Part shown: positions 1-64,000 of the stretch, in pieces | Position numbering within the stretch: the stretch's first letter is position 1 | Layout: each line of letters opens with the position of its first letter | From: Saccoglossus kowalevskii | Taxonomy: Eukaryota > Hemichordata > Enteropneusta > Harrimaniidae | DNA: 64,000 bases | Direction: 5' to 3' | Assembly: GCF_000003605.2 (NCBI RefSeq) | Contig: NW_003133315.1 | Coordinates: 124,001 to 188,000 of the forward strand | Position numbers and translations under genes: made by a program | The notes under the pieces: model-generated | The model's input: only the letters and a program-made list of their open reading frames with translations | What the model was told of the DNA's origin: nothing | The model's database searches: none

Positions 1-557
1 GTCGAACAATTTAATAAAAGCCAGTTGAAAGCAGCCTATAGATGTTTACATGAACTGACTGTAAAATGTTAGAAAACAGCATGCAATGTTCAAGGGAAAA
101 AGCGAAGGAAATGTTGGCGGAGTTGCTTGTATATTAAACCTAAGTCATTGTCATGTCACCCCGCAGTTAAATTTCGAAAACAATAAGTAAATATATCGAG
201 AATGCCTCATAAATAAGCAGATTATCACAACAGCCAACCGAAAATTCGACAACAAACTGCGTACAAAGTTTTGAAAAGCGATTGCAAAGTTGCTTGTTTC
301 AATCGGTATTGTTACCTGAGATATCATATTAACAATTACCATAGTTAAAAGTTCGAAAATGTGTATAAATATTTTGTGAATTGCTGTAAAATTACCGTAG
401 TGTTACTCCAAGTAAGTAGAGGTCATAGGTCAAATATCGAAGGTACTTTGTGCCAGCGATAATGATGTTAAAACATTTAAAAACATGAAATACCCGCCAA
501 TTCGGATTAACATTAAATAATTCATGCAGCTGTGTGTTTAGGTGAACGCCAAATGTT

Positions 558-630
558 TAAAGTAAAGCGTAATCGGGCGTGGTTAGTACTTGCATGGGAG
601 ACTCCCTGAGTAAATGAGCCATTGATTTTT
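558..630 (+). pseudogene. 5S rRNA-like core, copy 1 (class A)
   Basis: Same core as copy 12 but with the class A lead-in ggtgaacgccaaatgttta. Here gcgcgatcggg reads gcgtaatcggg. The downstream spacer keeps the 10-bp block aaaatcgtgg. The private variant ttttaagtaagg (about 733) recurs after copy 38. Confidence 0.75.
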
Positions 631-1505
631 CTTTCATCACACTCACACACATAGTAAAGATATAATGCAACGCTCCTGCATCCTTCCTTACTGTGATGGC
701 AGTTATTTATAGTGGAAAATCGTGGACTTTTTGTAACTATTTTAAGTAAGGAAAAGTTTTCAAATTCCTTCTAATTTTCTAGAACAAGTTGTAGATGCTG
801 ACGGTACGTAGTAGGTTTTAAGATGTTAACACACCGTGTAAAGTTGTTCAAAGTGATTGCAAAGTTGTGCAAAGTTATTGCAAAGTTCGTTGATGTATTG
901 GTATGTATGACCTAAGTTGTTGGCATATAGAAACGCGCAGTGGTAAAGTCGAACAATTTAATAAAAGCCAGTTCAAAGCAGCATATAGATGTTTACATGA
1001 ACTCACTGTAAAATGTTAGAAAACAGCATGCAATGTTCAAGTAAAAAAGCGAAGGAAATTTTGGCGGAGTTGCTTGTATATTAAACCTAAGTCATCGTCA
1101 TGACACCCCCGCAGTTAAATTTCGAAAACAATAAGTAAATGTATCGAGAATGCCTCATAAATAAGCAGATTATCACAACAGCCAACCGAAAATTCGACAA
1201 CAAACTGCTTACAAAGTTGTGAAGAGCGATTGCAAAGTTGCTTGTTTCAATCGGTATTGTTACCTGAGATATCATATTAAGAATTACCATAGTTAAAAGT
1301 TCGAAAATGTGTATAAATATTTCGTGAATTGCTGTTAAATTACCGTAGTGTTACTCCGAGTAAGTAGAGGTCATAGGTCAAATATGGAAGGTACTTTGTG
1401 CCAGCGATAACGATTTTAAAACATTTAAAAACATAAAATACCCGCCAATTTGGCTTAACTTTAAATAATTTATGCAGCTCTATGTTTAGATGACCGCCAA
1501 AAGTT

Positions 1506-1578
1506 GAAAGTAAAGCGCGATTGGGCATGGTTAGTACTTGCATGGGAGACTCCCTGAGTAAATGAACCATTGATTTTT
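1506..1578 (+). pseudogene. 5S rRNA-like core, copy 2 (class B)
   Basis: Class B lead-in with gctctatg. The box A to intermediate element stretch reads gattgggcatgg, a pair of changes shared only with copy 39. The 10-bp block is present downstream, which is unusual for class B. Confidence 0.75.
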
Positions 1579-2453
1579 CTTTCATCACACTCACACACAT
1601 AGTAAAGATATAAGGCAACGCTCCTGCATCCTTCCTTACTGTGATGGCAGTTATTGATAGTGGAAAATCGTGGACTTTTTGTAACTATTTTAATTAAGGA
1701 AAAGTTTTCAAATTCCTTCTAATTTTCTAGAACAAGTTGTAGATGCTGTCGGTACGTAGTAGGTTTTAAGATGTTAACACACCGTGTAAAGTTGTTCAAA
1801 GTGAATGCAAAGTTATGGAAAGTTATTGCAAAGTTCGTTGATGTATTGTTATGTATGACCTAAGTTGTTGGCATATAGAAACGCGCAGTGGTAAAGTCGA
1901 ACAATTTAATAAAAGCCACTTCAAAGCAGCATATAGATGTTTACATGAACTCACTGTAAAATGTTAGAAAACAGCATGCAATGTTCAAGTAAAAAAGCGA
2001 AGGAAATTTTGGCGGAGTTGCTTGTATATTAAACCTAAGTCATCGTCATGACACCCCCGCAGTTAAATTTCGAAAACAATAAGTAAATGTATCGAGAATG
2101 CCTCATAAATAAGCAGATTATCACAACAGCCAACCGAAAATTCGACAACAAACTGCTTACAAAGTTGTGAAAAGCGATTGCAAAGTGGCTTGTTTCAATC
2201 GGTATTGTTACCTGAGATATCATATTAACAATTACCATAGTTAAAAGTTCGAAAATGTGTATAAATATTTCGTGAATTGCTGTTAAATTACCGTAGTGTT
2301 ACTCCGAGTAAGTAGAGGTCATAGGTCAAATATGGAAGGTACTTTGTGCCAGCGATAACGATTTTAAAACATTTAAAAACATAAAATACCCGCCAATTTG
2401 GCTTAACTTTAAATAATTCATGCAGCTGTATGTTTAGATGACCGCCAAAAGTT

Positions 2454-2526
2454 GAAAGTAAAGCGCGATCGGGCGTGGTTAGTACTTGCATAGGAGACTC
2501 CCTGAGTAAATGAGCCATTGATTTTT
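2454..2526 (+). pseudogene. 5S rRNA-like core, copy 3 (class B)
   Basis: Class B. Box C reads cataggagac, breaking the GGGAGA block conserved in 5S. The helix I candidate arms are at 2394-2403 and 2513-2520. The 10-bp block is absent. Confidence 0.75.
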
Positions 2527-3254
2527 CTTTCATCACACTCACACACATAGTAAAGATATAAGGCAACGCTCCTGCATCCTTCCTTACTGTGATGGCAATT
2601 ATTTATAGTGGACTTTTTGTAACTATTTTAATTAAGGAAAAGTTTTCAAATTCCTTCTAATTTTCTAGAACAAGTTGTAGATGCTGTCGGTACGTAGTAG
2701 GTTTTAAGATGTTAACACACCGTGTAAAGTTGTTCAAAGTGATTGCAAAGTTATGGAAAGTTATTGCAAAGTTCGTTGATGTATTGGTATGTATGACCTA
2801 AGTTGTTGGCATATAGAAACGCGCAGTGGTAAAGTCGAACAATTTAATAAAAGCCAGTTCAAAGCAGCATATAGATGTTTACATGAACTCACTGTAAAAT
2901 GTTAGAAAACAGCATGCAATGTTCAAGTAAAAAAGCGAAGGAAATTTTGGCGGAGTTGCTTGTATATTAAACCTAAGTCATCGTCATGACACCCCCGCAG
3001 TTAAATTTCGAAAACAATAAGTAAATGTATCGAGAATGCCTCATAAATAAGCAGATTATCACAACAGCCAACCGAAAATTCGACAACAAACTGCTTACAA
3101 AGTTGTGAAAAGCGATTGCAAAGTGGCTTGTTTCAATCGGTATTGTTACCTGATATATCATATTAACAATTACCATAGTTAAAAGTTCGAAAATGTGTAT
3201 AAATATTTTGTGAATTACTGTTAAATTACCGTAGTGTTACTCCGAGTAAGTAGA

Positions 3255-3555
3255 GGTCATAGTCAAACATGGAAAGTACTTTGTGCCAGCGATAACGATT
3301 TTAAAACATTTAAATCATAAATACCCGCCAATTGGCTTAACTTTAAATAATTCATGCAGCTCTATGTTTAGATGACCGCCAAAAGTTGAAAGTAAAGCGC
3401 GATCGGGCGTGGTTAGTACTTGCATGGGAGAACTCCCTGAGTAAATGAGCCATTGATTTTCTTTCATCACACTCACACACATAGTAAAGATATAAGGCAA
3501 CGCTCTGCATCCTTCCTTACTGTGATGGCAATTATTTATAGTGGACTTGTTGTAA
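3255..3555. other. Indel cluster, probable sequence-quality defect
   Basis: Within copy 4 several bases are missing or added (catagtcaaac, tttaaatcataaatacc, ccaattggc, gagaactcc, gctctgcatcc, actatttttaat). The net effect is the 934-bp spacing. As at 13155 and 41966, changes are mostly one base and local. Confidence 0.5.
3388..3460 (+). pseudogene. 5S rRNA-like core, copy 4 (class B, indel-rich)
   Basis: Class B. Box C has an extra a (gagaactccc) and the terminal run is only TTTT. The surrounding unit (about 3260-3560) carries many one-base losses and gains, so these changes may be sequence errors. Confidence 0.7.
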
Positions 3556-4325
3556 CTATTTTTAATTAAGGAAAAGTTTTCAAATTCCTTCTAATTTTCT
3601 AGAACAAGTTGTAGATGCTGTCGGTACGTAGTAGGTTTTAAGATGTTAACACACCGTGTAAAGTTGTTCAAAGTGATTGCAAAGTTATGCAAAGTTATTG
3701 CAAAGTTCGTTGATGTATTGGTATGTATGACCTAAGTTGTTGGCATATAGAAACGTGCAGTGGTAAAGTCGAACAATTTAATAAAAGCCAGTTCAAAGCA
3801 GCATATAGATGTTTACATGAACTCACTGTAAAATGTTAGAAAACAGCATGCAATGTTCAAGTAAAAAAGCGAAGGAAATTTTGGCGGAGTTGCTTGTATA
3901 TTAAACCTAAGTCATCGTCATGACACCCCCGCAGTTAAATTTCGAAAACAATAAGTAAATGTATCGAGAATGCCTCATAAATAAGCAGATTATCACAACA
4001 GCCAACCGAAAATTCGACAACAAACTGCTTACAAAGTTGTGAAAAGCGATTGCAAAGTTGCTTGTTTCAATCGGTATTGTTATCTGAGATATCATATTAA
4101 CAATTACCATAGTTAAAAGTTCGAAAATGTGTATAAATATTTCGTGAATTGCTGTTAAATTACCGCAGTGTTACTCCAAGTTAGTAGAGGTCATAGGTCA
4201 AATATCGAAGGTACTTTGTGCCAGCGATAATGATGTTAAAACATTTAAAAACATGAAATACCCGCCAATTCGGATTAACTTTAAATAATTCATGCAGCTG
4301 TGTGTTTAGGTGAACGCCAAATGTT

Positions 4326-4398
4326 TAAAGTAAAGCGCGATCGGGCGTGGTTAGTACTTGCATGGGAGACTCCCCGAGTAAATGAGCCATTGATTTTT
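4326..4398 (+). pseudogene. 5S rRNA-like core, copy 5 (class A)
   Basis: Class A with box C ending ccccgag instead of ccctgag, a marker shared with copies 7, 23, 26 and 57. The next unit carries the acaacatgcaatg marker, so 5-6 form one of the recurring A-B dimers. Confidence 0.75.
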
Positions 4399-5272
4399 CT
4401 TTCATCACACTCACACACATAGTAAAGATATAAGGCAACGCTCCTGCATCCTTCCTTACTGTGATGGCAGTTATTTATAGTGGAAAATCGTGGACTTTTT
4501 GTATCTATTTTAATTAAGGAAAAGTTTTCAAATTCCTTCTAATTTTCTAGAACAAGTTGTAGATGCTGACGGAGCGTAGTAGGTTTTAAGATGTTAACAC
4601 ACCGTGTAAAGTTGTTCAAAGTGATTGCAAAGTTATGCAAAGTTATTGCAAAGTTCGTTGATGTATTGGTATGTATGACCTAAGTTGTTGGCATATAGAA
4701 ACGCGCAGTGGTAAAGTCGAACAATTTAATAAAAGCCAGTTCAAAGCAGCATATAGATGTTTACATGAACTCACTGTAAAATGTTAGAAAACAACATGCA
4801 ATGTTCAAGTAAAAAGCGAAGTAAATTTTGGCGGAGTTGCTTGTATATTAAACCTAAGTCATCGTCATGACACCCCCGCAGTTAAATTTCGAAAACAATA
4901 AGTAAATGTATCGAGAATGCCTCATAAATAAGCAGATTATCACAACAGCCAACCGAAAATTCGACAACAAACTGCTTACAAAGTTGTGAAAAGCGATTGC
5001 AAAGTTGCTTGTTTCAATCGGTATTGTTACCTGAGATATCATATTAACAATTACCATAGTTAAAAGTTCGAAAATGTGTATAAATATTTCGTGAATTGTT
5101 GTAAAATTACCGTAGTGTTACTCCGAGTAAGTAGAGGTCATAGGTCAAATATGGAAGGTACTTTGTGCCAGCGATAACGATTTTAAAACATTTAAAAACA
5201 TAAAATACCCGCCAATTTGGCTTAACTTTAAATAATTCATGCAGCTGTATGTTTAGATGACCGCCAAAAGTT

Positions 5273-5345
5273 GAAAGTAAAGCGCGATCGGGCGTGGTTA
5301 GTACTTGCATGGGAGACTCCCTGAGTAAATGAGCCATTGATTTTT
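5273..5345 (+). pseudogene. 5S rRNA-like core, copy 6 (class B)
   Basis: Standard class B core. Its unit leader has acaacatgcaatg and agcgaagtaaatttt, the signature of the B half of the recurring A-B dimer. Confidence 0.78.
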
Positions 5346-6210
5346 CTTTCATCACACTCACACACATAGTAAAGATATAAGGCAACGCTCCTGCATCCTT
5401 CCTTACTGTGATGGCAATTATTTATAGTGGACTTTTTGTAACTATTTTAATTAAGGAAAAGTTTTCAAATTCCTTCTAATTTTCTAGAACAAGTTGTAGA
5501 TGCTGTCGGTACGTAGTAGGATTTAAGATGTTAACACACCGTGTAAAGTTGTTCAAAGTGATTGCAAAGTTATGCAAAGTTATTGCAAAGTTCGTTGATG
5601 TATTGGTATGTATGACCTAAGTTGTTGGCATATAGAAACGCGCAGTGGTAAAGTCGAACAATTTAATAAAAGCCAGTTCAAAGCAGCATATAGATGTTTA
5701 CATGAACTCACTGTAAAATGTTAGAAAACAGCATGCAATGTTCAAGGGAAAAAGCGAAGGAAATTTTGGCGGAGTTGCTTGTATATTAAACCTAAGTCAT
5801 CGTCATGACACCCCCGCAGTTAAATTTCGAAAACAATAAGTAAATGTATCGAGAATGCCTCATAAATAAGCAGATTATCACAACAGCTAACCGAAAATTC
5901 GACAACAAACTGCTTACAAAGTTGTGAAAAGCGATTGCAAAGTTGCTTGTTTCAATCGGTATTGTTATCTGAGATATCATATTAACAATTACCATAGTTA
6001 AAAGTTCGAAAATGTGTATAAATATTTCGTGAATTGCTGTAAAATTACCGCAGTGTTACTCCAAGTAAGTAGAGGTCATAGGTCAAATATCGAAGGTACT
6101 TTGTGCCAGCGATAATGATGTTAAAACATTTAAAAACATGAAATACCCGCCAATTCGAATTAACTTTAAATAATTCATGCAGCTGTGTGTTTAGGTGAAC
6201 GCCAAATGTT

Positions 6211-6283
6211 TAAAGTAAAGCGCGATCGGGCGTGGTTAGTACTTGCATGGGAGACTCCCCGAGTAAATGAGCCATTGATTTTT
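6211..6283 (+). pseudogene. 5S rRNA-like core, copy 7 (class A)
   Basis: Class A with ccccgag. Upstream it has caattcgaattaac, a variant otherwise seen only at copy 57, 47 kb away. Confidence 0.75.
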
Positions 6284-7157
6284 CTTTCATCACACTCACA
6301 CACATAGTAAAGATATAAGGCAACGCTCCTGCATCCTTCCTTACTGTGATGGCAGTTATTTATAGTGGAAAATCGTGGACTTTTTGTATCTATTTTAATT
6401 AAGGAAAAGTTTTCAAATTCCTTCTAATTTTCTAGAACAAGTTGTAGATGCTGACGGTACGTAGTAGGTTTTAAGATGTTAACACACCGTGTAAAGTTGT
6501 TCAAAGTGATTGCAAAGTTATGCAAAGTTATTGCAAAGTTCGTTGATGTATTGGTATGTATGACCTAAGTTGTTGGCATATAGAAACGCGCAGTGGTAAA
6601 GTCGAACAATTTAATAAAAGCCAGTTCAAAGCAGCATATAGATGTTTACATGAACTCACTGTAAAATGTTAGAAAACAACATGCAATGTTCAAGTAAAAA
6701 GCGAAGTAAATTTTGGCGGAGTTGCTTGTATATTAAACCTAAGTCATCGTCATGACACCCCCGCAGTTAAATTTCGAAAACAATAAGTAAATGTATCGAG
6801 AATGCCTCATAAATAAGCAGATTATCACAACAGCCAACCGAAAATTCGACAACAAACTGCTTACAAAGTTGTGAAAAGCGATTGCAAAGTTGCTTGTTTC
6901 AATCGGTATTGTTACCTGAGATATCATATTAACAATTACCATAGTTAAAAGTTCGAAAATGTGTATAAATATTTCGTGAATTGTTGTTAAATTACCGTAG
7001 TGTTACTCCGAGTAAGTAGAGGTCATAGGTCAAATATGGAAGGTACTTTGTGCCAGCGATAACGATTTTAAAACATTTAAAAACATAAAATACCCGCCAA
7101 TTTGGCTTAACTTCAAATAATTCATGTAGCTCTATGTTTAGATGACCGCCAAAAGTT

Positions 7158-7230
7158 GAAAGTAAAGCGCGATCGGGCGTGGGTAGTACTTGCATGGGAG
7201 ACTCCCTGAGAAAATGAGCCATTGATTTTT
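7158..7230 (+). pseudogene. 5S rRNA-like core, copy 8 (class B)
   Basis: Class B with the gctctatg lead-in. The intermediate element reads gtgggtag instead of gtggttag, and the 3' part reads gagaaaatgag. It is the B partner of copy 7. Confidence 0.72.
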
Positions 7231-8095
7231 CTTTCATCACACTCACACACATAGTAAAGATATAAGGCAACGCTCCTGCATCCTTCCTTACTGTGATGGC
7301 AATTATTTATAGTGGACTTTTTGTAACTATTTTAATTAAGGAAAAGTTTTCAAATTCCTTCTAATTTTCTAGAACAAGTTGTAGATGCTGTCGGTACGTA
7401 GTAGGTTTTAAGATGTTAACACATCGTGTAAAGTTGTTCAAAGTGATTGCAAAGTTATGGAAAGTTATTGCAAAGTTCGTTGATGTATTGGTATGTATGA
7501 CCTAAGTTGTTGGCACATAGAAACGCGCAGTGGTAAAGTCGAACAATTTAATAAAAGCCAGTTCAAAGCAGCATATAGATGTTTACATGAACTCACTGTA
7601 AAATGTTAGAAAACAGCATGCAATGTTCAAGGGAAAAAGCGAAGGAAATTTTGGCGGAGTTGCTTGAATATTAAACCTAAGTCATCGTCATGACACCCCC
7701 GCAGTTAAATTTCGAAAACAATAAGTAAATGTATCGAGAATGCCTCATAAATAAGCAGATTATCACAACAGCCAACCGAAAATTCGACAACAAACTGCTT
7801 ACAAAGTTGTGAAAAGCGATTGCAAAGTTGCTTGTTTCAATCGGTATTGTTACCTGAGATATCATATTAACAATTACCATAGTTAAAAGTTCGAAAATGT
7901 GTATAAATATTTCGTGAATTGCTGTTAAATTACCGTAGTGTTACTCCGAGTAAGTAGAGGTCATAGGTCAAATATGGAAGGTACTTTGTGCCAGCGATAA
8001 CGATTTTAAAACATTTAAAAACATAAAATACCCGCCAATTTGGCTTAACTCCAAATAATTCATGTAGCTCTATGTTTAGATGACCGCCAAAAGTT

Positions 8096-8168
8096 GAAAG
8101 TAAAGCGCGATCGGGCGTGGTTAGTACTTGCATGGGAGACTCCCTGAGTAAATGAGCCATTGATTTTT
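8096..8168 (+). pseudogene. 5S rRNA-like core, copy 9 (class B)
   Basis: Standard class B core with the gctctatg lead-in. It starts the long, nearly pure class B run that reaches about 20.4 kb. Confidence 0.78.
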
Positions 8169-9033
8169 CTTTCATCACACTCACACACATAGTAAAGATA
8201 TAAGGCAACGCTCCTGCATGCTTCCTTACTGTGATGGCAATTATTTATAGTGGACTTTTTGTAACTATTTTAATTAAGGAAAAGTTTTCAAATTCCTTCT
8301 AATTTTCTAGAACAAGTTGTAGATGCTGTCGGTACGTAGTAGGTTTTAAGATGTTAACACACCGTGTACAGTTGTTCAAAGTGATTGCAAAGTTATGGAA
8401 AGTTATTGCAAAGTTCGTTGATGTATTGGTATGTATGACCTAAGTTGTTGGCATATAGAAACGCGCAGTGGTAAAGTCGAACAATTTAATAAAAGCCAGT
8501 TCAAAGCAGCATATAGATGTTTACATGAACTCACTGTAAAATGTTAGAAAACAGCATGCAATGTTCAAGTAAAAAAGCGAAGGAAATTTTGGCGGAGTTG
8601 CTTGTATATTAAACCTAAGTCATCGTCATGACACCCCCGCAGTTAAATTTCGAAAACAATAAGTAAATGTATCGAGAATGCCTCATAAATAAGCAGATTA
8701 TCACAACAGCCAACCGAAAATTCGACAACAAACTGCTTACAAAGTTGTGAAAAGCGATTGCAAAGTGGCTTGTTTCAATCGGTATTGTTACCTGAGATAT
8801 CATATTAACAATTACCATAGTTAAAAGTTCGAAAATGTGTATAAATATTTCGTGAATTGCTGTTAAATTACCGTAGTGTTACTCCGAGTAAGTAGAGGTC
8901 ATAGGTCAAATATGGAAGGTACTTTGTGCCAGCGATAACGATTTTAAAACATTTAAAAACATAAAATTCCCGCCAATTTGGCTTAACTTTAAATAATTCA
9001 TGCAGCTGTATGTTTAGATGACCGCCAAAAGTT

Positions 9034-9106
9034 GAAAGTAAAGCGTGATCGGGCGTGGTTAGTACTTGCATGGGAGACTCCTTGAGTAAATGAGCCATTG
9101 ATTTTT
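9034..9106 (+). pseudogene. 5S rRNA-like core, copy 10 (class B)
   Basis: Class B with gcgtgatcggg in box A and ccttgag at the end of box C. This pair of changes, with the spacer variants ataaaattcccgcc and gtattagtatg, recurs in copies 65 and 66 about 52 kb away. Confidence 0.75.
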
Positions 9107-9971: not shown

Positions 9972-10044
9972 GAAAGTAAAGCGCGATATGGCGTGGTTAG
10001 TACTTGCATGGGAGACTCCCTGAGTAAATGAGCCATTGATTTTT
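9972..10044 (+). pseudogene. 5S rRNA-like core, copy 11 (class B)
   Basis: Class B. It reads cataatttgaaag before box A and gcgcgatatggcg in place of gcgcgatcgggcg, a three-base change next to the intermediate element. Confidence 0.7.
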
Positions 10045-41078: not shown

Positions 41079-41942
41079 CTTTCATCACACTCACACACAT
41101 AGTAAAGATATAAAGCAAAGCTCTTGCATCCTTCCTTACTGTGATGGCAGTTATTTATAGTGGAAAATCGTGGACTTTTTGTAACTATTTTAATTAAGGA
41201 AAAGTTTTCAAATTCCTTCCAATTTTCTAGAACAAGTTGTAGATGCTGACGGTACGTAGTAGGTTTTAAGATGTTAACACACCGTGTAAAGTTGTTCAAA
41301 GTGATTGCAAAGTTATTGCAAAGTTCGTTGATGTATTGGTATGTATGACCTAAGTTGTTGGCATATAGAAACGCGCAGTGGTAAAGTCGAACAATTTAAT
41401 AAAAGCCAGTTCAAAGCAGCATATAGATGTTTACATGAACTGACTGTAAAATGTTAGAAAACAGCATGCAATGTTCAAGGGAAAAAGCGAAGGAAATGTT
41501 GGCGGAGTTGCTTGTATATTAAACCTAAATTATTGTCATGACACCCCGCAGTTAAATTTCGAAAACAATAAGTAAATATATCGAGAATGCCTCATAAATA
41601 AGCAGATTATCACAACAGCCAACCGAAAATTCGACAACAAACTGCTTACAAAGTTGTGAAAAGCGATTGCAAAGTTGCTTGTTTCAATCGGTATTGTTAC
41701 CTGAGATATCATATTAACAATTACCATAGTTAAAAGTTCGAAAATGTGTATAAATATTTCGTGAATTGCTGTAAAATTACCGTAGTGTTACTCCAAGTAA
41801 GTAGAGGTTATAGGTCAAATATAGAAGGTACTTTGTGCCAGCGATAATGATGTTAAAACATTTAAAAACATGAAATACCCGCCAATTCGGATTAACTTTA
41901 AATAATTCATGCAGCTGTGTGTTTAGGTGAACGCCAAATGTT

Positions 41943-42026
41943 TAAAGTAAAGCGCGATCGGGCGTGGTTTAGTATACTTGCATGGGGAGAACTTCCCTGA
42001 GAGTAATAGAGGCCCATTGATTTTTT
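41943..42026 (+). pseudogene. 5S rRNA-like core, copy 45 (class A, heavily inserted)
   Basis: Class A up to gcgtggtt; after that many extra single bases appear (gtttagtatacttg, catggggagaacttccc, gagagtaatagaggccc). The core is about 11 bp longer than normal. The pattern of doubled bases continues to about 42140 and looks like a poorly polished stretch. Confidence 0.65.
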
Positions 42027-42140
42027 CTTTTCATCCCACATCTCCCACCCCATTGTAAAGGATTATAAAGGCCAAACGGATTCCTTGCATCCTTTCCTTT
42101 ACTGTGATGGCAGTTATTTATAGTGGAAAAATCGTGGACT
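41966..42140. other. Indel burst, probable sequence-quality defect
   Basis: Over about 175 bp the unit gains roughly 28 single bases, mostly as doubled or near-doubled letters (ggtttag, catgggg, ttttttc, cctttccttt), with scattered substitutions. The rest of the unit is normal. The 975-bp spacing is explained by this stretch alone. It looks like unpolished raw-read sequence rather than mutation. Confidence 0.7.
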
Positions 42141-42917
42141 TTTTTGTAACTATTTTAATTAAGGAAAAGTTTTCAAATTCCTTCTAATTTTCTAGAACAA
42201 GTTGTAGATGCTGACGGTACGTAGTAGGTTTTAAGATGTTAACACACCGTGTAAAGTTGTTCAAAGTGATTGCAAAGTTATGTAAAGTTATTGCAAAGTT
42301 CGTTGATGTATTGGTATGTATGACCTAAGTTGTTGGCATATAGAAACGCGCAGTGGTAAAGTCGAACAATTTAATAAAAGCCAGTTCAAAGCAGCATATA
42401 GATGTTTACATGAACTCACTGTAAAATGTTAGAAAACAGCATGCAATGTTCAAGTAAAAAAGCGAAGGAAATTTTGGCGGAGTTGCTTGTATATTAAACC
42501 TAAATTATTGTCATGACACCCCGCAGTTAAATTTCGAAAACAATAAGTAAATATATCGAGAATGCCTCATAAATAAGCAGATTATCACAACAGCCAACCG
42601 AAAATTCGACAACAAACTGCTTACAAAGTTGTGAAAAGCGATTGCAAAGTTGCTTGTTTCAATCGGTATTGTTACCTGAGATATCATATTAACAATTACC
42701 ATAGTTAAAAGTTCGAAAATGTGTATAAATATTTCGTGAATTGCTGTAAAATTACCGTAGTGTTACTCCAAGTAAGTAGAGGTCATAGGTCAAATATAGA
42801 AGGTACTTTGTGCCAGCGATAATGATGTTAAAACATTTAAAAACATGAAATACCCGCCAATTCGGATTAACTTTAAATAATTCATGCAGCTGTGTGTTTA
42901 GGTGAACGCCAAATGTT

Positions 42918-54258: not shown

Positions 54259-55122
54259 CTTTCATCACACTCACACACATAGTAAAGATATAAGGCAAAG
54301 CTCCTGCATCCTTCCTTACTGTGATGGCAGTTATTTATAGTGGACTTTTTGTAACTATTTTAATTAAGGAAAAGTTTTCAAATTCCTTCTAATTTTCTAG
54401 AACAAGTTGTAGATGCTGTCGGTACGTAGTAGGTTTTAAGATGTTAACACACCGTGTAAAGTTGTTCAAAGTGATTGCAAAGTTATGCAAAGTTATTGCA
54501 AAGTTCGTTGATGTATTGGTATGTATGACCTAAGTTGTTGGCATATAGAAACGCGCAGTGGTAAAGTCGAACAATTTAATAAAAGCCAGTTCAAAGCAGC
54601 ATATAGATGTTTACATGAACTCACTGTAAAATGTTAGAAAACAACATGCAATGCTCAAGTAAAAAGCGAAGTAAATTTTGGCGGAGTTGCTTGTATATTA
54701 AACCTAAGTCATCGTCATGACACCCCCGCAGTTAAATTTCGAAAACAATAAGTAAATGTATCGAGAATGCCTCATAAATAAGCAGATTATCACAACAGCC
54801 AACCGAAAATTCGACAACAAACTGCTTACAAAGTTGTGAAAAGCGATTGCAAAGTTGCTTGTTTCAATCGGTATTGTTACCTGAGATATCATATTAACAA
54901 TTACCATAGTTAAAAGTTCGAAAATGTGTATAAATATTTCGTGAATTGTTGTAAAATTACCGTAGTGTTACTCCGAGTAAGTAGAGGTCATAGGTCAAAT
55001 ATGGAAGGTACTTTGTGCCAGCGATAACGATTTTAAAACATTTAAAAACATAAAATACCCGCCAATTTGGCTTAACTTTAAATAATTCATGCAGCTCTAT
55101 GTTTAGATGACCGCCAAAAGTT

Positions 55123-55195
55123 GAAAGTAAAGCGCGATCGGGCGTGGTTAGTACTTGCATGGGAGACTCCCTGAGTAAATGAGCCATTGATTTTT
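55123..55195 (+). pseudogene. 5S rRNA-like core, copy 59 (class B)
   Basis: Standard class B core with gctctatg. The downstream spacer is A-like with the 10-bp block and lacks one TTGCAAAG word. Confidence 0.78.
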
Positions 55196-56060
55196 CTTTC
55201 ATCACACTCACACACATAGTAAAGATATAAGGCAACGCTCCTGCATCCTTCCTTACTGTGATGGCAGTTATTTATAGTGGAAAATCGTGGACTTTTTGTA
55301 ACTATTTTAATTATGGAAAAGTTTTCAAAATCCTTTCTAATTTTCTAGAACAATTTGTAGATGCTGACGGTACGTAGTAGGTTTTAAGATGTTAACACAC
55401 CGTGTAAAGTTGTTCAAAGTGATTGCAAAGTTATTGCAAAGTTCGTTGATGTATTGGTATGTATGACCTAAGTTGTAGGCATATAGAAACGCGCAGTGGT
55501 AAAGTCGAACAATTTAATAAAAGCCAGTTCAAAACAGCATATAGATGTTTACATGAACTGACTGTAAAATGTTAGAAAACAGCATGCAATGTTGAAGGGA
55601 AAAAGCGAAGGAAATGTTGGCGGAGTTGCTTGTATATTAAACCTAAGTCATTGTCATGTCACCCCGCAGTTAAATTTCGAAAACAATAAGTAAATATATC
55701 GAGAATGCCTCATAAATAAGCAGATTATCACAACAGCCAACCGAAAATTCGACAACAAACTGCGTACAAAATTTTGAAAAGCGTTTGCAAAGTTGCTTGT
55801 TTCAATCGGTATTGTTACCTGAGATATCATATTAACAATTACCATAGTTAAAAGTTCGAAAATGTGTATAAATATTTCGTGAATTGCTGTAAAATTACCG
55901 TAGTGTTACTCCAAGTAAGTAGAGGTCATAGGTCAAATATCGAAGGTACTTTGTGCCAGCGATAATGATGTTAAAACATTTAAAAACATGAAATACCCGC
56001 CAATTCGGATTAACATTAAATAATTCATGCAGCTGTGTGTTTAGGTGAACGCCAAATGTT

Positions 56061-56133
56061 TAAAGTAAAGCGCGATCGGGCGTGGTTAGTACTTGCATGG
56101 GAGACTCCCTGAGTAAATGAGCCATTGATTTTT
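56061..56133 (+). pseudogene. 5S rRNA-like core, copy 60 (class A)
   Basis: Standard class A core with ttaacattaaat and ataatgcaacg. Its unit leader (caaactgcgtacaaaattttg) resembles the one that opens the window. Confidence 0.77.
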
Positions 56134-57008
56134 CTTTCATCACACTCACACACATAGTAAAGATATAATGCAACGCTCCTGCATCCTTCCTTACTGTGAT
56201 GGCAGTTATTTATAGTGGAAAATCGTGGACTTTTTGTAACTATTTTAATTAAGGAAAAGTTTTCAAATTCCTTCTAATTTTCTAGAACAAGTTGTAGATG
56301 CTGACGGTACGTAGTAGGTTTTAAGATGTTAACACACCGTGTAAAGTTGTTCAAAGTGATTGCAAAGTTATGCAAAGTTATTGCAAAGTTCGTTGATGTA
56401 TTGGTATGTATGACCTAAGTTGTTGGCATATAGAAACGCGCAGTGGTAAAGTCGAACAATTTAATAAAAGCCAGTTCAAAGCAGCATATAGATGTTTACA
56501 TGAACTCACTGTAAAATGTTAGAAAACAGCATGCAATGTTCAAGTAAAAAAGCGAAGGAAATTTTGGCGGAGTTGCTTGTATATTAAACCTAAGTCATCG
56601 TCATGACACCCCCGCAGTTAAATTTCGAAAGCAATAAGTAAATGTATCGAGAATGCCTCATAAATAAGCAGATTATCACAACAGCCAACCGAAAATTCGA
56701 CAACAAACTGCTTACAAAGTTGTGAAAAGCGATTGCAAAGTTGCTTGTTTCAATCGGTATTGTTACCTGAGATATCATATTAAGAATTACCATAGTTAAA
56801 AGTTCGAAAATGTGTATAAATATTTTGTGAATTGCTGTTAAATTACCGTAGTGTTACTCCGAGTAAGTAGAGGTCATAGGTCAAATATGGAAGGTACTTT
56901 GTGCCAGCGATAACGATTTTAAAACATTTAAAAACATAAAATACCCGCCAATTTGGCTTAACTTTAAATAATTCATGCAGCTGTATGTTTAGATGACTGC
57001 CAAAAGTT

Positions 57009-57081
57009 GAAAGTAAAGCGCAATCGGGCGTGGTTAGTACTTGCATGGGAGACTCCCTGAGTAAATGAGCCATTGATTTTT
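57009..57081 (+). pseudogene. 5S rRNA-like core, copy 61 (class B)
   Basis: Class B with gatgactgcc and gcgcaatcggg. It begins the nearly pure class B run that reaches the window end. Confidence 0.76.
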
Positions 57082-57946
57082 CTTTCATCACACTCACACA
57101 CATAGTAAAGATATAAGGCAACGCTCCTGCATCCTTCCTTACTGTGATGGCAATTATTTATAGTGGACTTTTTGTAACTATTTTAATTAAGGAAAAGTTT
57201 TCAAATTCCTTCTAATTTTCTAGAACAAGTTGTAGATGCTGTCGGTACGTAGTAGGTTTTAAGATGTTAACACACCGTGTAAAGTTGTTCAAAGTGATTG
57301 CAAAGTTATGGAAAGTTATTGCAAAGTTCGTTGATGTATTGGTATGTATGACCTAAGTTGTTGGCATATAGAAACGCGCAGTGGTAAAGTCGAACAATTT
57401 AATAAAAGCCAGTTCAAAGCAGCATATAGATGTTTACATGAACTCACTGTAAAATGTTAGAAAACAGCATGCAATGTTCAAGTAAAAAAGCGAAGGAAAT
57501 TTTGGCGGAGTTGCTTGTATATTAAACCTAAGTCATCGTCATGACACCCCCGCAGTTAAATTTCGAAAACAATAAGTAAATGTATCGAGAATGCCTCATA
57601 AATAAGCAGATTATCACAACAGCCAACCGAAAATTCGACACCAAACTGCTTACAAAGTTGTGAAAAGCGATTGCAAAGTTGCTTGTTTCAATCGGTATTG
57701 TTACCTGAGATATCATATTAACAATTACCATAGTTAAAAGTTCGAAAATGTGTATAAATATTTCGTGAATTGCTGTTAAATTACCGTAGTGTTACTCCGA
57801 GTAAGTAGAGGTCATAGGTCAAATATGGAAGGTACTTTGTGCCAGCGATAACGATTTTAAAACATTTAAAAACATAAAATACCCGCCAATTTGGCTTAAC
57901 TTTAAATAATTCATGCAGCTCTATGTTTAGATGACCGCCAAAAGTT

Positions 57947-58019
57947 GAAAGTAAAGCGCGATCGGGCGTGGTTAGTACTTGCATGGGAGACTCCCTGAGT
58001 AAATGAGCCATTGATTTTT
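57947..58019 (+). pseudogene. 5S rRNA-like core, copy 62 (class B)
   Basis: Standard core, gctctatg lead-in. The spacer reads gtggacttcttg, shared with copy 68. Confidence 0.78.
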
Positions 58020-58884
58020 CTTTCATCACACTCACACACATAGTAAAGATATAAGGCAACGCTCCTGCATCCTTCCTTACTGTGATGGCAATTATTTATA
58101 GTGGACTTCTTGTAACTATTTTAATTAAGGAAAAGTTTTCAAATTCCTTCTAATTTTCTAGAACAAGTTGTAGATGCTGTCGGTACGTAGTAGGTTTTAA
58201 GATGTTAACACACCGTGTAAAGTTGTTCAAAGTGATTGCAAAGTTATGGAAAGTTATTGCAAAGTTCGTTGATGTATTGGTATGTATGACCTAAGTTGTT
58301 GGCATATAGAAACGCGCAGTGGTAAAGTCGAACAATTTAATAAAAGCCAGTTCAGAGCAGCATATAGATGTTTACATGAACTCACTGTAAAATGTTGGAA
58401 AACAGCATGCAATGTTCAAGTAAAAAAGCGAAGGAAATTTTGGCGGAGTTGCTTGTATATTAAACCTAAGTCATCGTCATGACACCCCCGCAGTTAAATT
58501 TCGAAAACAATAAGTAAATGTATCGAGAATGCCTCATAAATAAGCAGATTATCACAACAGCCAACCGAAAATTCGACAACAAACTGCTTACAAAGTTGTG
58601 AAAACCGATTGCAAAGTTGCTTGTTTCAATCGGTATTGTTACCTGAGATATCATATTAACAATTACCATAGTTAAAAGTTCGAAAATGTGTATAAATATT
58701 TCGTGAATTGCTGTTAAATTACCGTAGTGTTACTCCGAGTAAGTAGAGGTCATAGGTCAAATATGGAAGATACTTTGTGCCAGCGATAACGATTTTAAAA
58801 CATTTAAAAACATAAAATACCCGCCAATTTGGCTTAACTTTAAATAATTCATGCAGCTGTATGTTTAGATGACCGCCAAAAGTT

Positions 58885-58957
58885 GAAATTAAAGCGCGAT
58901 CGGGCGTGGTTAGTACTTGCATGGGAGACTCCCTGAGTAAATGAGCCATTGATTTTT
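58885..58957 (+). pseudogene. 5S rRNA-like core, copy 63 (class B)
   Basis: Class B with gaaattaaagcgc at box A. The leader of this unit has tgttggaaaac in place of tgttagaaaac. Confidence 0.75.
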
Positions 58958-59822
58958 CTTTCATCACACTCACACACATAGTAAAGATATAAGGCAACGC
59001 TCCTGCATCCTTCCTTACTGTGATGGCAATTATTTATAGTGGACTTTTTGTAACTATTTTAATTATGGAAAAGTTTTCAAATTCCTTCTAATTTTCTAGA
59101 ACAAGTTGTAGATGCTGTCGGTACGTAGTAGGTTTTAAGATGTTAACACACCGTGTAAAGTTGTTCAAAGTGATTGCAAAGTTATGGAAAGTTATTGCAA
59201 AGTTCGTTGATGTATTGGTATGTATGACCTAAGTTGTTGGCATATAGAAACGCGCAGTGGTAAAGTCGAACAATTTAATAAAAGCCAGTTCAAAGCAGCA
59301 TATAGATGTTTACATGAACTCACTGTAAAATGTTAGAAAACAGCATGCAATGTTCAAGTAAAAAAGCGAAGGAAATTTTGGCGGAGTTGCTCGTATATTA
59401 AACCTAAGTCATCGTCATGACACCCCCGCAGTTAAATTTTGAAAACAATAAGTAAATGTATCGAGAATGCCTCATAAATAAGCAGATTATCACAACAGCC
59501 AACCGAAAATTCGACAACAAACTGCTTACAAAGTTGTGAAAAGCGATTGCAAAGTTGCTTGTTTCAATCGGTATTGTTACCTGAGATATTATATTCACAA
59601 TTACCATAGTTAAAAGTTCGAAAATGTGTATAAATATTTCGTGAATTGCTGTTAAATTACCGTAGTGTTACTCCGAGTAAGTAGAGGTCATAGGTCAAAT
59701 ATGGAAGGTACTTTGTGCCAGCGATAACGATTTTAAAACATTTAAAAACATAAAATACCCGCCAATTTGGCTTAACTTTAAATAATTCATGCAGCTGTAT
59801 GTTTAGATGACCGCCAAAAGTT

Positions 59823-59895
59823 GAAAGTAAAGCGCGATCGGGCGTGGTTAGTACTTGCATGGGAGACTCCCTGAGTAAATGAGCCATTGATTTTT
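59823..59895 (+). pseudogene. 5S rRNA-like core, copy 64 (class B)
   Basis: Standard core. The unit shares gatattatattcacaatt with copy 28. Four one-base losses follow at about 59930-60015. Confidence 0.78.
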
Positions 59896-60756
59896 CTTTC
59901 ATCACACTCACACACATAGTAAAGATATAAGCAACGCTCCTGCATCCTTCCTTACTGTGATGGCAATTATTTATAGTGGACTTTTGTAACTATTTTAATA
60001 AGGAAAAGTTTTCAATTCCTTCTAATTTTCTAGAACAAGTTGTAGATGCTGTCGGTACGTAGTAGGTTTTAAGATGTTAACACACCGTGTAAAGTTGTTC
60101 AAAGTGATTGCAAAGTTATGGAAAGTTATTGCAAAGTTCGTTGATGTATTGGTATGTATGACCTAAGTTGTTGGCATATAGAAACGCGCAGTGGTAAAGT
60201 CGAACAATTTAATAAAAGCCAGTTCAAAGCAGCATATAGATGTTTACATGAACTCACTGTAAAATGTTAGAAAACAGCATGCAATGTTCAAGTAAAAAAG
60301 CGAAGGAAATTTTGGCGGAGTTGCTTGTATATTAAACCTAAGTCATCGTCATGACACCCCCGCAGTTAAATTTCGAAAGCAATAAGTAAATGTATCGAGA
60401 ATGCCTCATAAATAAGCAGATTATCACAACAGCCAACCGAAAATTCGACAACAAACTGCTTACAAAGTTGTGAAAAGCGATTGCAAAGTGGCTTGTTTCA
60501 ATCGGTATTGTTACCTGAGATATCATATTAACAATTACCATGGTTAAAAGTTCGAAAATGTGTATAAATATTTCGTGAATTTCTGTTAAATTACCGTAGT
60601 GTTACTCCGAGTAAGTAGAGGTCATAGGTCAAATATGGAAGGTACTTTGTGCCAGCGATAACGATTTTAAAACATTTAAAAACATAAAATTCCCGCCAAT
60701 TTGGCTTAACTTTAAATAATTCATGCAGCTGTATGTTTAGATGACCGCCAAAAGTT

Positions 60757-60829
60757 GAAAGTAAAGCGTGATCGGGCGTGGTTAGTACTTGCATGGGAGA
60801 CTCCTTGAGTAAATGAGCCATTGATTTTT
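60757..60829 (+). pseudogene. 5S rRNA-like core, copy 65 (class B)
   Basis: Class B with gcgtgatcggg and ccttgag, as in copies 10 and 66. It belongs to a freshly amplified run (65-67). Confidence 0.77.
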
Positions 60830-61694
60830 CTTTCATCACACTCACACACATAGTAAAGATATAAGGCAACGCTCCTGCATCCTTCCTTACTGTGATGGCA
60901 ATTATTTATAGTGGACTTTTTGTAACTATTTTAATTAAGGAAAAGTTTTCAAATTCCTTCTAATTTTCTAGAACAAGTTGTAGATGCTGTCGGTACGTAG
61001 TAGGTTTTAAGATGTTAACACACCGTGTAAAGTTGTTCAAAGTGATTGCAAAGTTATGGAAAGTTATTGCAAAGTTCGTTGATGTATTAGTATGTATGAC
61101 CTAAGTTGTTGGCATATAGAAACGCGCAGTGGTAAAGTCGAACAATTTAATAAAAGCCAGTTCAAAGCAGCATATAGATGTTTACATGAACTCACTGTAA
61201 AATGTTAGAAAACAGCATGCAATGTTCAAGTAAAAAAGCGAAGGACATTTTGGCGGAGTTGCTTGTATATTAAACCTAAGTCATCGTCATGACACCCCCG
61301 CAGTTAAATTTCGAAAACAGTAAGTAAATGTATCGAGAATGCCTCATAAATAAGCAGATTATCACAACAGCCAACCGAAAATTCGACAAGAAACTGCTTA
61401 CAAAGTTGTGAAAAGCGATTGCAAAGTGGCCTGTTTCAATCGGTAATGTTACCTGAGATATCATATTAACAATTACCATAGTTAAAAGTTCGAAAATGTG
61501 TATAAATATTTCGTGAATTGCTGTTAAATTACCGTAGTGTTACTCCGAGTAAGTAGAGGTCATAGGTCAAATATGGAAGGTACTTTGTGCCAGCGATAAC
61601 GATTTTAAAACATTTAAAAACATAAAATTCCCGCCAATTTGGCTTAACTTTAAATAATTCATGCAGCTGTATGTTTAGATGACCGCCAAAAGTT

Positions 61695-61767
61695 GAAAGT
61701 AAAGCGTGATCGGGCGTGGTTAGTACTTGCATGGGAGACTCCTTGAGTAAATGAGCCATTGATTTTT
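61695..61767 (+). pseudogene. 5S rRNA-like core, copy 66 (class B)
   Basis: Core identical to copy 65 by eye. The unit shares gacaagaaactg, gtggcctgtttc and cggtaatgtt with copy 67 only. Confidence 0.77.
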
Positions 61768-62632
61768 CTTTCATCACACTCACACACATAGTAAAGATAT
61801 AAGGCAACGCTCCTGCATCCTTCCTTACTGTGATGGCAATTATTTATAGTGGACTTTTTGTAACTATTTTAATTAAGGAAAAGTTTTCAAATTCCTTCTA
61901 ATTTTCTAGAACAAGTTGTAGATGCTGTCGGTACGTAGTAGGTTTTAAGATGTTAACACACCGTGTAAAGTTGTTCAAAGTGATTGCAAAGTTATGGAAA
62001 GTTATTGCAAAGTTCGTTGATGTATTAGTATGTATGACCTAAGTTGTTGGCATATAGAAACGCGCAGTGGTAAAGTCGAACAATTTAATAAAAGCCAGTT
62101 CAAAGCAGCATATAGATGTTTACATGAACTCACTGTAAAATGTTAGAAAACAGCATGCAATGTTCAAGTAAAAAAGCGAAGGAAATTTTGGCGGAGTTGC
62201 TTGTATATTAAACCTAAGTCATCGTCATGTCACCCCCGCAGTTAAATTTCGAAAACAGTAAGTAAATGTATCGAGAATGCCTCATAAATAAGCAGATTAT
62301 CACAACAGCCAACCGAAAATTCGACAAGAAACTGCTTACAAAGTTGTGAAAAGCGATTGCAAAGTGGCCTGTTTCAATCGGTAATGTTACCTGAGATATC
62401 ATATTAACAATTACCATAGTTAAAAGTTCGAAAATGTGTATAAATATTTCGTGAATTGCTGTTAAATTACCGTAGTGTTACTCAGAGTAATTAGAGGTCA
62501 TAGGTCAAATATGGAAGGTACTTTGTGCCAGCGATAACGATTTTAAAACATTTAAAAACATAAAATACCCGCCAATTTGGCTTAACTTTAAATAATTCAT
62601 GCAGCTGTATGTTTAGATGACCGCCAAAAGTT

Positions 62633-62705
62633 GAAAGTAAAGCGTGATCGGGCGTGGTTAGTACTTGCATGGGAGACTCCCTGAGTAAATGAGCCATTGA
62701 TTTTT
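62633..62705 (+). pseudogene. 5S rRNA-like core, copy 67 (class B)
   Basis: It has gcgtgatcggg as in 65-66 but the ordinary ccctgag. Upstream it reads ctcagagtaattagagg where others have ctccgagtaagtagagg. Confidence 0.77.
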
Positions 62706-63570
62706 CTTTCATCACACTCACACACATAGTAAAGATATAAGGCAACGCTCCTGCATCCTTCCTTACTGTGATGGCAATTATTTATAGTGGACTTTTTGTA
62801 ACTATTTTAATTAAGGAAAAGTTTTCAAATTCCTTCTAATTTTCTAGAACAAGTTGTAGATGCTGTCGGTACGTAGTAGGTTTTAAGATGTTAACACACC
62901 GTGTAAAGTTGTTCAAAGTGATTGCAAAGTTATGGAAAGTTATTGCAAAGTTCGTTGATGTATTGGTATGTATGACCTAAGTTGTTGGCATATAGAAACG
63001 CGCAGTGGTAAAGTCGAACAATTTAATAAAAGCCAGTTCAGAGCAGCATATAGATGTTTACATGAACTCACTGTAAAATGTTAGAAAACAGCATGCAATG
63101 TTCAAGTAAAAAAGCGAAGGAAATTTTGGCGGAGTTGCTTGTATATTAAACCTAAGTCATCGTCATGACACCCCCGCAGTTAAATTTCGAAAACAATAAG
63201 TAAATGTATCGAGAATGCCTCATAAATAAGCAGATTATCACAACAGCCAACCGAAAATTCGACAACAAACTGCTTACAAAGTTGTGAAAAGCGATTGCAA
63301 AGTTGCTAGTTTCAATCGGTATTGTTACCTGAGATATCATATTAACAATTACCATAGTTAAAAGTTCGAAAATGTGTATAAATATTTCGTGAATTGCTGT
63401 TAAATTACCGTAGTGTTACTCCGAGTAAGTAGAGGTCATAGGTCAAATATGGAAGGTACTTTGTGCCAGCGATAACGATTTTAAAACATTTAAAAACATA
63501 AAATACCCGCCAATTTGGCTTATCTTTAAATAATTCATGCAGCTCTATGTTTAGATGACCGCCAAAAGTT

Positions 63571-63643
63571 GAAAGTAAAGCGCGATCGGGCGTGGTTAGT
63601 ACTTGCATGGGAGACTCCCTGAGTAAATGAGCCATTGATTTTT
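63571..63643 (+). pseudogene. 5S rRNA-like core, copy 68 (class B)
   Basis: Standard core, gctctatg lead-in and gtggacttcttg spacer, matching copy 62. A partial next unit follows from 63951 to the window end. Confidence 0.78.
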
Positions 63644-63950
63644 CTTTCATCACACTCACACACATAGTAAAGATATAAGGCAACGCTCCTGCATCCTTCC
63701 TTACTGTGATGGCAATTATTTATAGTGGACTTCTTGTAACTATTTTAATTAAGGAAAAGTTTTCAAATTCCTTCTAATTTTCTAGAACAAGTTGTAGATG
63801 CTGTCGGTACGTAGTAGGTTTTAAGATGTTAACACACCGTGTACAGTTGTTCAAAGTGATTGCAAAGTTATGGAAAGTTATTGCAAAGTTCGTTGATGTA
63901 TTGGTATGTATGACCTAAGTTGTTGGCATATAGAAACGCGCAGTGGTAAA

Positions 63951-64000
63951 GTCGAACAATTTAATAAAAGCCAGTTCAAAGCAGCATATAGATGTTTACA
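63951..64000 (+). repeat. Partial unit 69 at window edge
   Basis: The window ends 50 bp into the next unit, which starts with the usual gtcgaacaattt. This shows that the array continues beyond the window. Confidence 0.95.

What the first reader, a model, noticed from the sequence alone, without database searches (positions are those of the whole stretch)
1..64000. At least 68 tandem units each carrying a 5S-rRNA-like Pol III promoter and T-run
Every unit holds a core that matches 5S rRNA over box A, the intermediate element and box C (about 42 of 53 columns to human 5S recalled from memory) and then a T4-T9 run in the terminator position. No canonical 5S gene occurs in the window. This fits a satellite derived from 5S rDNA, a known but uncommon route (PcP190 in frogs, 5SHindIII in Hoplias). 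If Pol III or TFIIIA still binds, the array could make large amounts of a short, non-ribosomal RNA or act as a TFIIIA/TFIIIC binding block.
Basis: partly seen in the sequence, partly recalled or inferred. Interest (0 to 1): 0.85.

Follow-up and report, generated by a model that had tools for sequence, protein, structure and literature searches.

The report
Satellite carrying a 5S RNA promoter
The whole window is a long run of a 938-base repeat that grew out of the animal's own 5S ribosomal RNA gene; most of the gene has decayed beyond recognition, but the core of its inner switch and its stop signal are kept, here and in related repeats elsewhere in the genome, as if the repeats still need, or once needed, to be read into RNA.

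Summary
Observation confirmed. The window is one head-to-tail array (67 complete units, mean 940 bp; 68 cores, one mangled). Every complete unit carries a 5S-like core on one strand, followed by a T4-T9 run. Origin from the host's own 5S gene is near certain.

The array belongs to a superfamily (about 730-950 bp units, thousands of copies). Arrays found with a bait outside the core still keep the intermediate element and first part of box C among the best-preserved stretches, while overall identity to the window unit falls to 0.55-0.83. A T4+ run stays in place in 166 of 168 units although its surroundings are poorly conserved. Within single arrays the core is not less variable than the rest.

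Best reading: a 5S-derived satellite superfamily that kept a Pol III promoter core and terminator and lost the ribosomal RNA. Transcription is inferred, not shown. A second, 216-bp satellite of nearly full-length 5S pseudogenes also occurs.

The parts
1..64000 (+). One uninterrupted satellite array, consensus unit 938 bp (67 complete units plus partial ends); the contig holds the same array in the three 10-kb stretches looked at outside the window
   Evidence: window = contig C2499:124001-188000 of 209201; the stretches L059, L060 and L064 hold 11 cores each at 935-949 spacing
560..602 (+). 5S promoter core (host 5S 49-91: box A remnant, intermediate element, first part of box C) in the first unit; 68 such cores in the window, positions
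   Evidence: Consensus: 41 of 44 alignment columns identical to host 5S (41 of 42 aligned bases, one 1-nt gap on each side), 30-nt identical run
626..630 (+). T-run at the position of the 5S terminator in the first unit (T4-T9 in all 67 complete units)
   Evidence: likeness to the host 5S 3' end plus flank
63573..63615 (+). 5S promoter core of the last unit in the window
   Evidence: core at 63588
41945..42000 (+). The one mangled core, with several small insertions; looks like uncorrected read error or a degenerate copy
   Evidence: 16 insertion places in this unit, at most 2 in any other
819..909 (+). Right part of an ancient ~176-bp monomer (M0) after the 5S block, first unit
   Evidence: Self-alignment, (M0-M2 z 7.8)
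910..1084 (+). Ancient monomer M1 (~175 bp), first unit
   Evidence: M1-M2 z 7.5 against shuffles
1085..1260 (+). Ancient monomer M2 (~176 bp); contains the motif used as a bait that does not touch the 5S core
1261..1343 (+). Left part of a third ancient monomer (M3) before the next 5S block
   Evidence: Local self-alignment score 39 against shuffle maximum 30.5; as a whole 176-bp monomer M3 is not significant (z 0.8 and 1.6)

Best explanation
The array is a satellite descended from the host's own 5S rRNA gene. A 5S gene, probably with its terminator, became part of a tandem repeat that also contains about three old copies of a ~176-bp monomer. Since then the gene body (5S 1-48, and most of 92-119) has become almost unrecognisable, but the internal promoter core (intermediate element and first part of box C, with a remnant of box A) and a T-run at the terminator place were kept while the superfamily spread and diverged into many arrays. 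The most likely reason is that units are, or were during amplification, recognised by TFIIIA/TFIIIC and transcribed by Pol III into a short, about 120-nt, non-ribosomal RNA. Either transcription itself helped units to be amplified (transcription-linked recombination or circle formation), or promoter-factor binding is useful to the array. Shown here: origin, superfamily, preferential retention of core and T-run between arrays. Inferred: factor binding, transcription, and how these favour the repeat.
For: Host 5S match. T-run at the host terminator place. Arrays C108, C113 and C322 were found with a bait outside the core and do not appear in the list of exact core 22-mers, which runs by contig up to C389; yet all 9 of 9 cores sampled there are recognisable at 2-7 mismatches of 30, the 7 through an indel. 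One unit of each has overall identity to the window unit of 0.63, 0.83 and 0.80 (gaps as mismatches) against 0.83, 0.93 and 0.93 in the core. With C115 (found by both baits; 0.55 against 0.97), the core averages 0.92 against 0.70, and every 30-nt window scoring higher overlaps the bait. Among 879 22-mers of the unit kept clear of the bait, the best core windows (starts 0-5 of the core) are found at <=4 mismatches in all sampled units of the four arrays; 0.12% of non-core windows do as well. Core windows further right fall to 0.63-0.92. Genome counts at <=2 mismatches: 3469 for a core 22-mer that misses intact true 5S, against 968 and 467 for two arbitrary 22-mers of the same unit, reversed controls 0. 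T4+ at +45..+80 in 166 of 168 superfamily units, against 11-27% of other 35-nt windows, although the stretch right after the core has the lowest identity between array consensuses of the positions printed.
Against: Within arrays the core is not depleted of variation: of 11 array samples one small one (L059, 9 units, no variation) is low; in the other ten the core ranks between 0.27 and 0.78 of all windows. In the window it has 14 singleton variants against 9.1 and 11 shared ones against 6.0 in sliding windows, that is, more than average. Box A, part of a working 5S promoter, is kept at only 9-13 of 15, and the last part of box C differs from 5S in all 12 superfamily rows. The core is not the only kept stretch: the bait motif and one window 262 nt downstream of the core do as well. 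The presumed RNA has no special fold (z 0.98, 0.41, -0.51). The T-run in the window alone is weak evidence: 13% of 16-nt stretches contain a T4 start, and the arrays are related, so their T-runs are not independent. Arrays C324, C389, C124, C203 and C6 were found through the core and are biased. No expression or binding data could be used.
Confidence: 0.6

Rival explanations
1. Fossil only: a 5S-derived fragment sits in the satellite as a passenger, homogenised with the rest of the unit, without promoter function. Its retention between arrays is chance or inherited regional differences in change.
For: Core diversity within arrays is average or above; box A degraded; no special RNA fold; another, non-5S window is kept as well as the core.
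Against: Retention of the core in arrays found without it, while the flanks diverge; 3469 against 968 and 467 copies; T4+ kept in 166 of 168 units in a poorly conserved stretch.
Confidence: 0.27
2. The core is kept by repeated gene conversion from the true 5S genes, not by function.
For: The core matches the host 5S almost exactly, including C82. [quoted passage not shown]
Against: Of 12 superfamily rows, 10 read GTAAAG where host 5S reads GTTAAG (the two C6 copies keep GTTAAG), and none keeps the host CGGC after GGGAGAC; several arrays hold private core changes. Conversion tracts would have to stop within the same ~30 nt every time.
Confidence: 0.08
3. The unit derives from a mobile element with a 5S promoter (SINE3, or an Ajax/Cassandra-like TRIM) that became tandem, not straight from a 5S gene.
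For: Ajax LTRs keep only box A, IE and box C, and SINE3 families compared there are diverged upstream (PMC10886601, section 3.7). Tandem Cassandra arrays exist (PMC7215508, abstract). Isolated or few-copy superfamily units lie in contigs C6, C203, C7, C58 and C257.
Against: A T-run sits at the 5S gene's own terminator place, and the C6 copies still resemble the 5S 3' end through it; a SINE needs readthrough there. No LTR-like second copy was found inside the unit. The ends of the C7, C58 and C257 copies could not be fetched.
Confidence: 0.12

Closest known systems
PcP190 satellite DNA of hyloid frogs (PMC11675491, abstract and passages)
   Same: Tandem repeat with a 5S-derived region that evolves more slowly than the rest; several sequence types; transcripts of the satellite reported there.
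   Different: PcP190 is ~190 bp with a 120-bp conserved region similar to the transcribed 5S region (69.4% similarity to 5S given there). Here the unit is 938 bp (728 to about 948 in relatives) and only ~43 bp of 5S is recognisable, but at 41 of 44 columns. The 216-bp satellite in the same genome (contigs C111, C242) is the closer PcP190 analogue.
5SHindIII-DNA of Hoplias malabaricus
   Same: Said to be a satellite derived from 5S rDNA.
   Different: Sequence not compared here.
Ajax TRIM and lepidopteran SINE3 (PMC10886601: abstract, sections 3.7 and 4, figure legends and tables)
   Same: Ajax keeps only box A, IE and box C of 5S; SINE3 families show the promoter region more conserved than the upstream part; read there as a kept Pol III promoter.
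   Different: Those are retroelements; this is tandem, has a T-run at the 5S terminator place and no LTR pair detected.
Tandem arrays of Cassandra in plants (PMC7215508, abstract only)
   Same: Tandem units each with a 5S promoter and terminator, resembling 5S rDNA arrays.
   Different: Plant LTR element with tandem arrays of at least 12 copies; the array here has 68 cores in the window.
SINE-derived satellites of squamates (PMC10702118, abstract and outline only)
   Same: Satellites made from parts of short interspersed elements.
   Different: SINE parts, not a 5S gene.

Membership tests
5S rRNA family (Rfam RF00001) | Covariance-model match over sequence and structure | tested here: not met
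   0 hits of any family at gathering and E<=10 over the window; on a 181-bp piece four sub-threshold matches to other families, none to RF00001. Positive control: 47 scored hits of RF00001 to true 5S genes of the same genome, 105-113 bits
5S rDNA-derived satellite (PcP190 / 5SHindIII kind) | Long tandem array | tested here: met
5S rDNA-derived satellite (PcP190 / 5SHindIII kind) | Homology to the host's own 5S gene | tested here: met
   41 of 44 columns, score 69 vs shuffle maximum 26
5S rDNA-derived satellite (PcP190 / 5SHindIII kind) | Similarity over most of the 5S gene | tested here: not met
   5S 1-48 not significant, 92-119 weak or not significant. The 216-bp satellite does look nearly full length in its consensus, without a separate test
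SINE3 | No Pol III terminator inside; LINE-like tail; dispersed copies with target-site duplications | tested here: inconclusive
Ajax / Cassandra TRIM | Two LTRs, primer-binding site, polypurine tract, target-site duplication | tested here: inconclusive
   No LTR-like direct repeat in the unit, only the ~176-bp monomers; PBS and PPT not tested; a tandem array would show one LTR per unit anyway
Active Pol III type 1 gene | Box A, IE, box C and T-run terminator present | tested here: inconclusive
   Window consensus: box A 13/15, IE 6/6, box C 14/18; T4+ in 67 of 67 units; box positions recalled from Xenopus 5S
Active Pol III type 1 gene | Transcript or polymerase occupancy | not testable with these tools
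   No RNA or ChIP data at hand

The most novel reading that the evidence does not exclude
A genome-wide satellite superfamily (thousands of units, arrays of different unit length) in which the core of a Pol III type 1 promoter is among the best-preserved stretches, with a terminator renewed in place. The promoter core would work as the shared box of the superfamily, as the CENP-B box does for alpha satellites: Pol III or TFIIIA/TFIIIC engagement is what lets a repeat be amplified and maintained, and the RNA body is free to change.
Probability: 0.35. Interest if true: 0.85.

Novelty: new variant of a known kind. Interest (0 to 1): 0.62.

Why it matters
5S-derived satellites are known, but in the nearest case (PcP190) the 5S-like region is shared over ~120 bp and it is open whether function or exchange with real 5S genes keeps it. 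Here the gene body has decayed and mainly the promoter core and the terminator position remain, in arrays that otherwise agree at 55-85%. That separates promoter function from ribosomal RNA function and makes a direct question testable: does Pol III recruitment drive satellite amplification or maintenance? It also shows that Rfam's 5S model can miss such a sequence while plain similarity to the host 5S finds it.

Tried and rejected
Rejected: functional 5S genes in the window. Chance similarity. A unit that still shares its spacer with today's 5S arrays: no spacer similarity to the one 1139-bp-type and one 1579-bp-type locus compared. Structured RNA. Core under constraint within arrays: not seen. 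Similarity of 5S 1-48: not significant; an upstream TTAAAAAC-N11-GCC likeness to host type-1 5S was seen by eye, and the upstream test that includes it left 1.9% of other places and 7.8% of shuffles as good, so it is not used. CpG decay as a cause of core variation: transitions per site only slightly higher at CpG (0.35 against 0.29). Exact-pattern scans of viral and prokaryote contigs for the core: 0 hits. Insertion of the 5S block into a ~176-bp satellite is suggested (left and right monomer parts nearly complete each other) but is not proven: M3 as a whole monomer is not significant, and arrays of monomers alone were not searched for separately.

Limits of the main argument: arrays C324, C389 and C124 and the C203 and C6 copies were found with the core pattern itself, so their core conservation is biased; the argument rests on C108, C113, C322 and, partly, C115 (found by both baits). 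Only three cores each were sampled for C108, C113 and C322, and one search uses one unit of each. The two arbitrary 22-mers were picked by me, not drawn at random.
Full report
What is in the window. The 64,000 bases are one tandem array. With an anchor outside the 5S-like part, 67 complete units of 927-975 bp (mean 940.5, consensus 938) were cut; mean pairwise identity is 97%. The 5S-like core occurs 68 times, all on the + strand: 67 by ungapped match and one at about 41960 with several small insertions. The T-run after box C is T5 in 62, T4 in 3 and T9 in 2 of the 67 units.

Is it 5S? Rfam finds nothing: 0 hits at gathering and at E<=10 for the window; on a 181-bp piece there are four sub-threshold matches to other families and none to RF00001. 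The decisive test was the host's own 5S. The window lies in an unnamed 572-Mb genome (contig C2499, 209 kb). RF00001 finds its true 5S genes in tandem arrays with units mostly near 1139 bp (C3485) and 1579 bp (C2212, C3801): 47 scored matches at 105-113 bits out of 18,217 first-look candidates. The unit aligns with host 5S 49-91 at 41 of 44 columns (41 of 42 aligned bases, one 1-nt gap on each side), with 30 consecutive identical bases, including a C at 5S 82 where the typed human, fly and sea-urchin sequences have G. Score 69 against 500 shuffles with maximum 26. The spacers of one locus of each host 5S type show no convincing similarity to the unit; beyond the core the best matches have E 0.097-0.56.

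How much of the gene is left. 5S 1-48 is not recognisable. 5S 92-119 alone is weak; for the window it is not significant (p 0.2-0.4). Together with 15 nt of 3' flank it is better: for the type-2 host gene no place outside the excluded neighbourhood scores as well (type 1: 1.75% of places); in a resampled null p is 0.017 (type 2) and 0.045 (type 1) for the window unit, 0.005-0.013 for C324 and C115, 0.005 and 0.070 for C124, 0.050 and 0.155 for C389. Two isolated, diverged copies in contig C6 keep more of the gene: box A reads AAGTTAAGCT as in the host, and the 3' end through the T-run can still be aligned (p 0.002-0.010). So the T-run most likely is the old 5S terminator.

The rest of the unit. 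About 500 bp are old copies of a ~176-bp monomer: part of M0, M1, M2, part of M3 (M1-M2 z 7.5, M0-M2 z 7.8, M0-M1 z 2.9; M3 as a whole monomer z 0.8 and 1.6, but its left part aligns locally with score 39 against shuffle maximum 30.5). The left part of M3 and the right part of M0 nearly complete each other, so the ~410-bp 5S block may have been inserted into a monomer; three copies with ends that happen to fit would look the same, and this is left open.

A superfamily, not one array. An exact pattern for the core (GGTTAGTACTTGSATGGGWGAC) occurs 3603 times in the genome, reversed control 0; this includes true 5S genes and the 216-bp satellite. Stretches from several contigs show relatives with units near 941-944 bp (C324, C389, C124; 84-87% identical to each other and to the window unit, the two C389 samples 97% to each other), a 728-bp relative (C115) at ~68% in the monomers, and few-copy relics in C203 and C6. 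A separate 216-bp satellite (C111, C242) is an array of nearly full-length 5S pseudogenes, with 3309 spacer matches at <=2 mismatches, reversed control 0.

Is the promoter core kept on purpose? Because the first search used the core, a second bait was taken from the monomer (TGCTTACAAAGTTGTGAAAAGC, 4398 matches at <=2 mismatches, reversed control 0). It gave arrays C108 (~880 bp), C113 (~942 bp) and C322 (904-930 bp), none of which appears in the exact-core list, which runs up to C389. All 9 cores sampled there are still obvious: 2-5 mismatches of 30, one 7 through an indel. With one unit of each, identity to the window unit (gaps as mismatches) is 0.63, 0.83 and 0.80 overall against 0.83, 0.93 and 0.93 in the core; for C115 it is 0.55 against 0.97. 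Averaged over the four, the core stands at 0.92 against 0.70, and all windows above it overlap the bait. In a search with all 22-mers of the unit, 879 kept clear of the bait, the first core windows are found at <=4 mismatches in every sampled unit of the four arrays and those further right in 0.63-0.92 of them; 0.12% of non-core windows equal the best core windows. Genome-wide at <=2 mismatches, a core 22-mer designed to miss intact true 5S has 3469 copies, two arbitrary 22-mers of the same unit 968 and 467, reversed controls 0. The T-run: 166 of 168 superfamily units with a recognisable core (<=8 mismatches; worse units are not counted) have T4 or more at +45..+80, against 11-27% of other 35-nt windows; the longest run varies from 3 to 10 between units. 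The 216-bp satellite has it in 38 of 44 (control 16.5%). The stretch after the core has the lowest identity between array consensuses of the positions printed. Core and terminator are thus kept while what lies around them changes.

Results against. Inside single arrays the core is about as variable as the rest (10 of 11 samples; one small sample of 9 units has no variation), and in the window more so (14 singletons against 9.1, 11 shared variants against 6.0). Box A is only 9-13 of 15 and the last part of box C differs from 5S in all 12 superfamily rows. The core is not the only kept motif: the monomer bait, and one window 262 nt downstream of the core, do as well. The presumed RNA and its neighbours fold no better than shuffles (z 0.98, 0.41, -0.51). 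T-runs of related arrays are not independent. Arrays C324, C389 and C124 carry search bias.

Mechanism. The pattern (promoter core and terminator kept, product lost, no constraint on single units) fits retention at the level of which repeats get amplified: units that recruit TFIIIA/TFIIIC/Pol III are copied or kept preferentially, or the arrays are useful as factor-binding blocks. Box A decay suggests that TFIIIA binding to IE and box C matters more than full promoter strength; this is inference. Conversion from true 5S genes is less likely because differences shared by most arrays flank the identical run on both sides: GTAAAG for GTTAAG in 10 of 12 rows, and no row with the host CGGC after GGGAGAC. 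A SINE3 or TRIM origin (PMC10886601) is less likely because of the terminator and the missing LTR pair, but the ends of three isolated copies could not be read.

Known or new. PcP190 in frogs (abstract and passages seen) is the nearest published case; other papers on satellites derived from 5S are in the listing (20 of 39 listed, not read apart from PMC11675491). Searches for 5S rRNA with ascidian and satellite DNA (0 papers), SINE3 with 5S rRNA and satellite (2 papers listed), satellite with 5S pseudogene and Pol III terms (20 of 171 listed), satellite DNA with 5S rRNA, box C and internal control region (2 papers listed, not read), and Pol III promoter, TFIIIC and satellite terms (15 of 21 listed) showed no title or abstract start that describes a superfamily keeping only promoter core and terminator. 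Those papers were mostly not read, and the library is partial. I rate it a new variant of a known kind.

Noticed in passing
L058 (contig C242:1-9999), L022-L041 (contig C111): A second 5S-derived satellite: 216-bp units with a nearly full-length but degenerate 5S (box A 14/15, IE 6/6, box C 18/18 in the consensus), ~89% identity between units in the C242 sample, 3309 spacer matches in the genome.
   Followed up: partly
window, just upstream of the core in each unit (first unit about 500-560): Two linked haplotypes (GTATGTTTAGATGACCGCCAAAAGTTGAAAG and GTGTGTTTAGGTGAACGCCAAATGTTTAAAG) make this stretch far more variable than the unit as a whole (pi 0.086 over 60 bp against 0.028), ending at the core.
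   Followed up: partly
window 1206-1227 and related arrays: The monomer motif TGCTTACAAAGTTGTGAAAAGC is as well kept as the 5S core across the sampled arrays (4398 copies at <=2 mismatches); partly bait bias, but it may be a second functional motif.
   Followed up: partly
window 41689-42663: One unit of 975 bp with 16 insertion places, in the part looked at mostly doubled bases, looks like uncorrected long-read sequence.
   Followed up: no
L001, L003, L061, L062 (true 5S arrays): The host has two 5S rDNA types with different spacers (units near 1139 and 1579 bp); the second shows weak internal periodicity of 44 and 88 bp (match fraction 0.34-0.35), and by eye both spacers contain AGAGGGCGCACCA. 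The spacers were not aligned to each other.
   Followed up: no
contigs C7:303294, C58:26465, C257:888228, C6:467446, C203:452808: Isolated or few-copy superfamily units outside long arrays as far as the lists show; the first three could not be fetched.
   Followed up: partly
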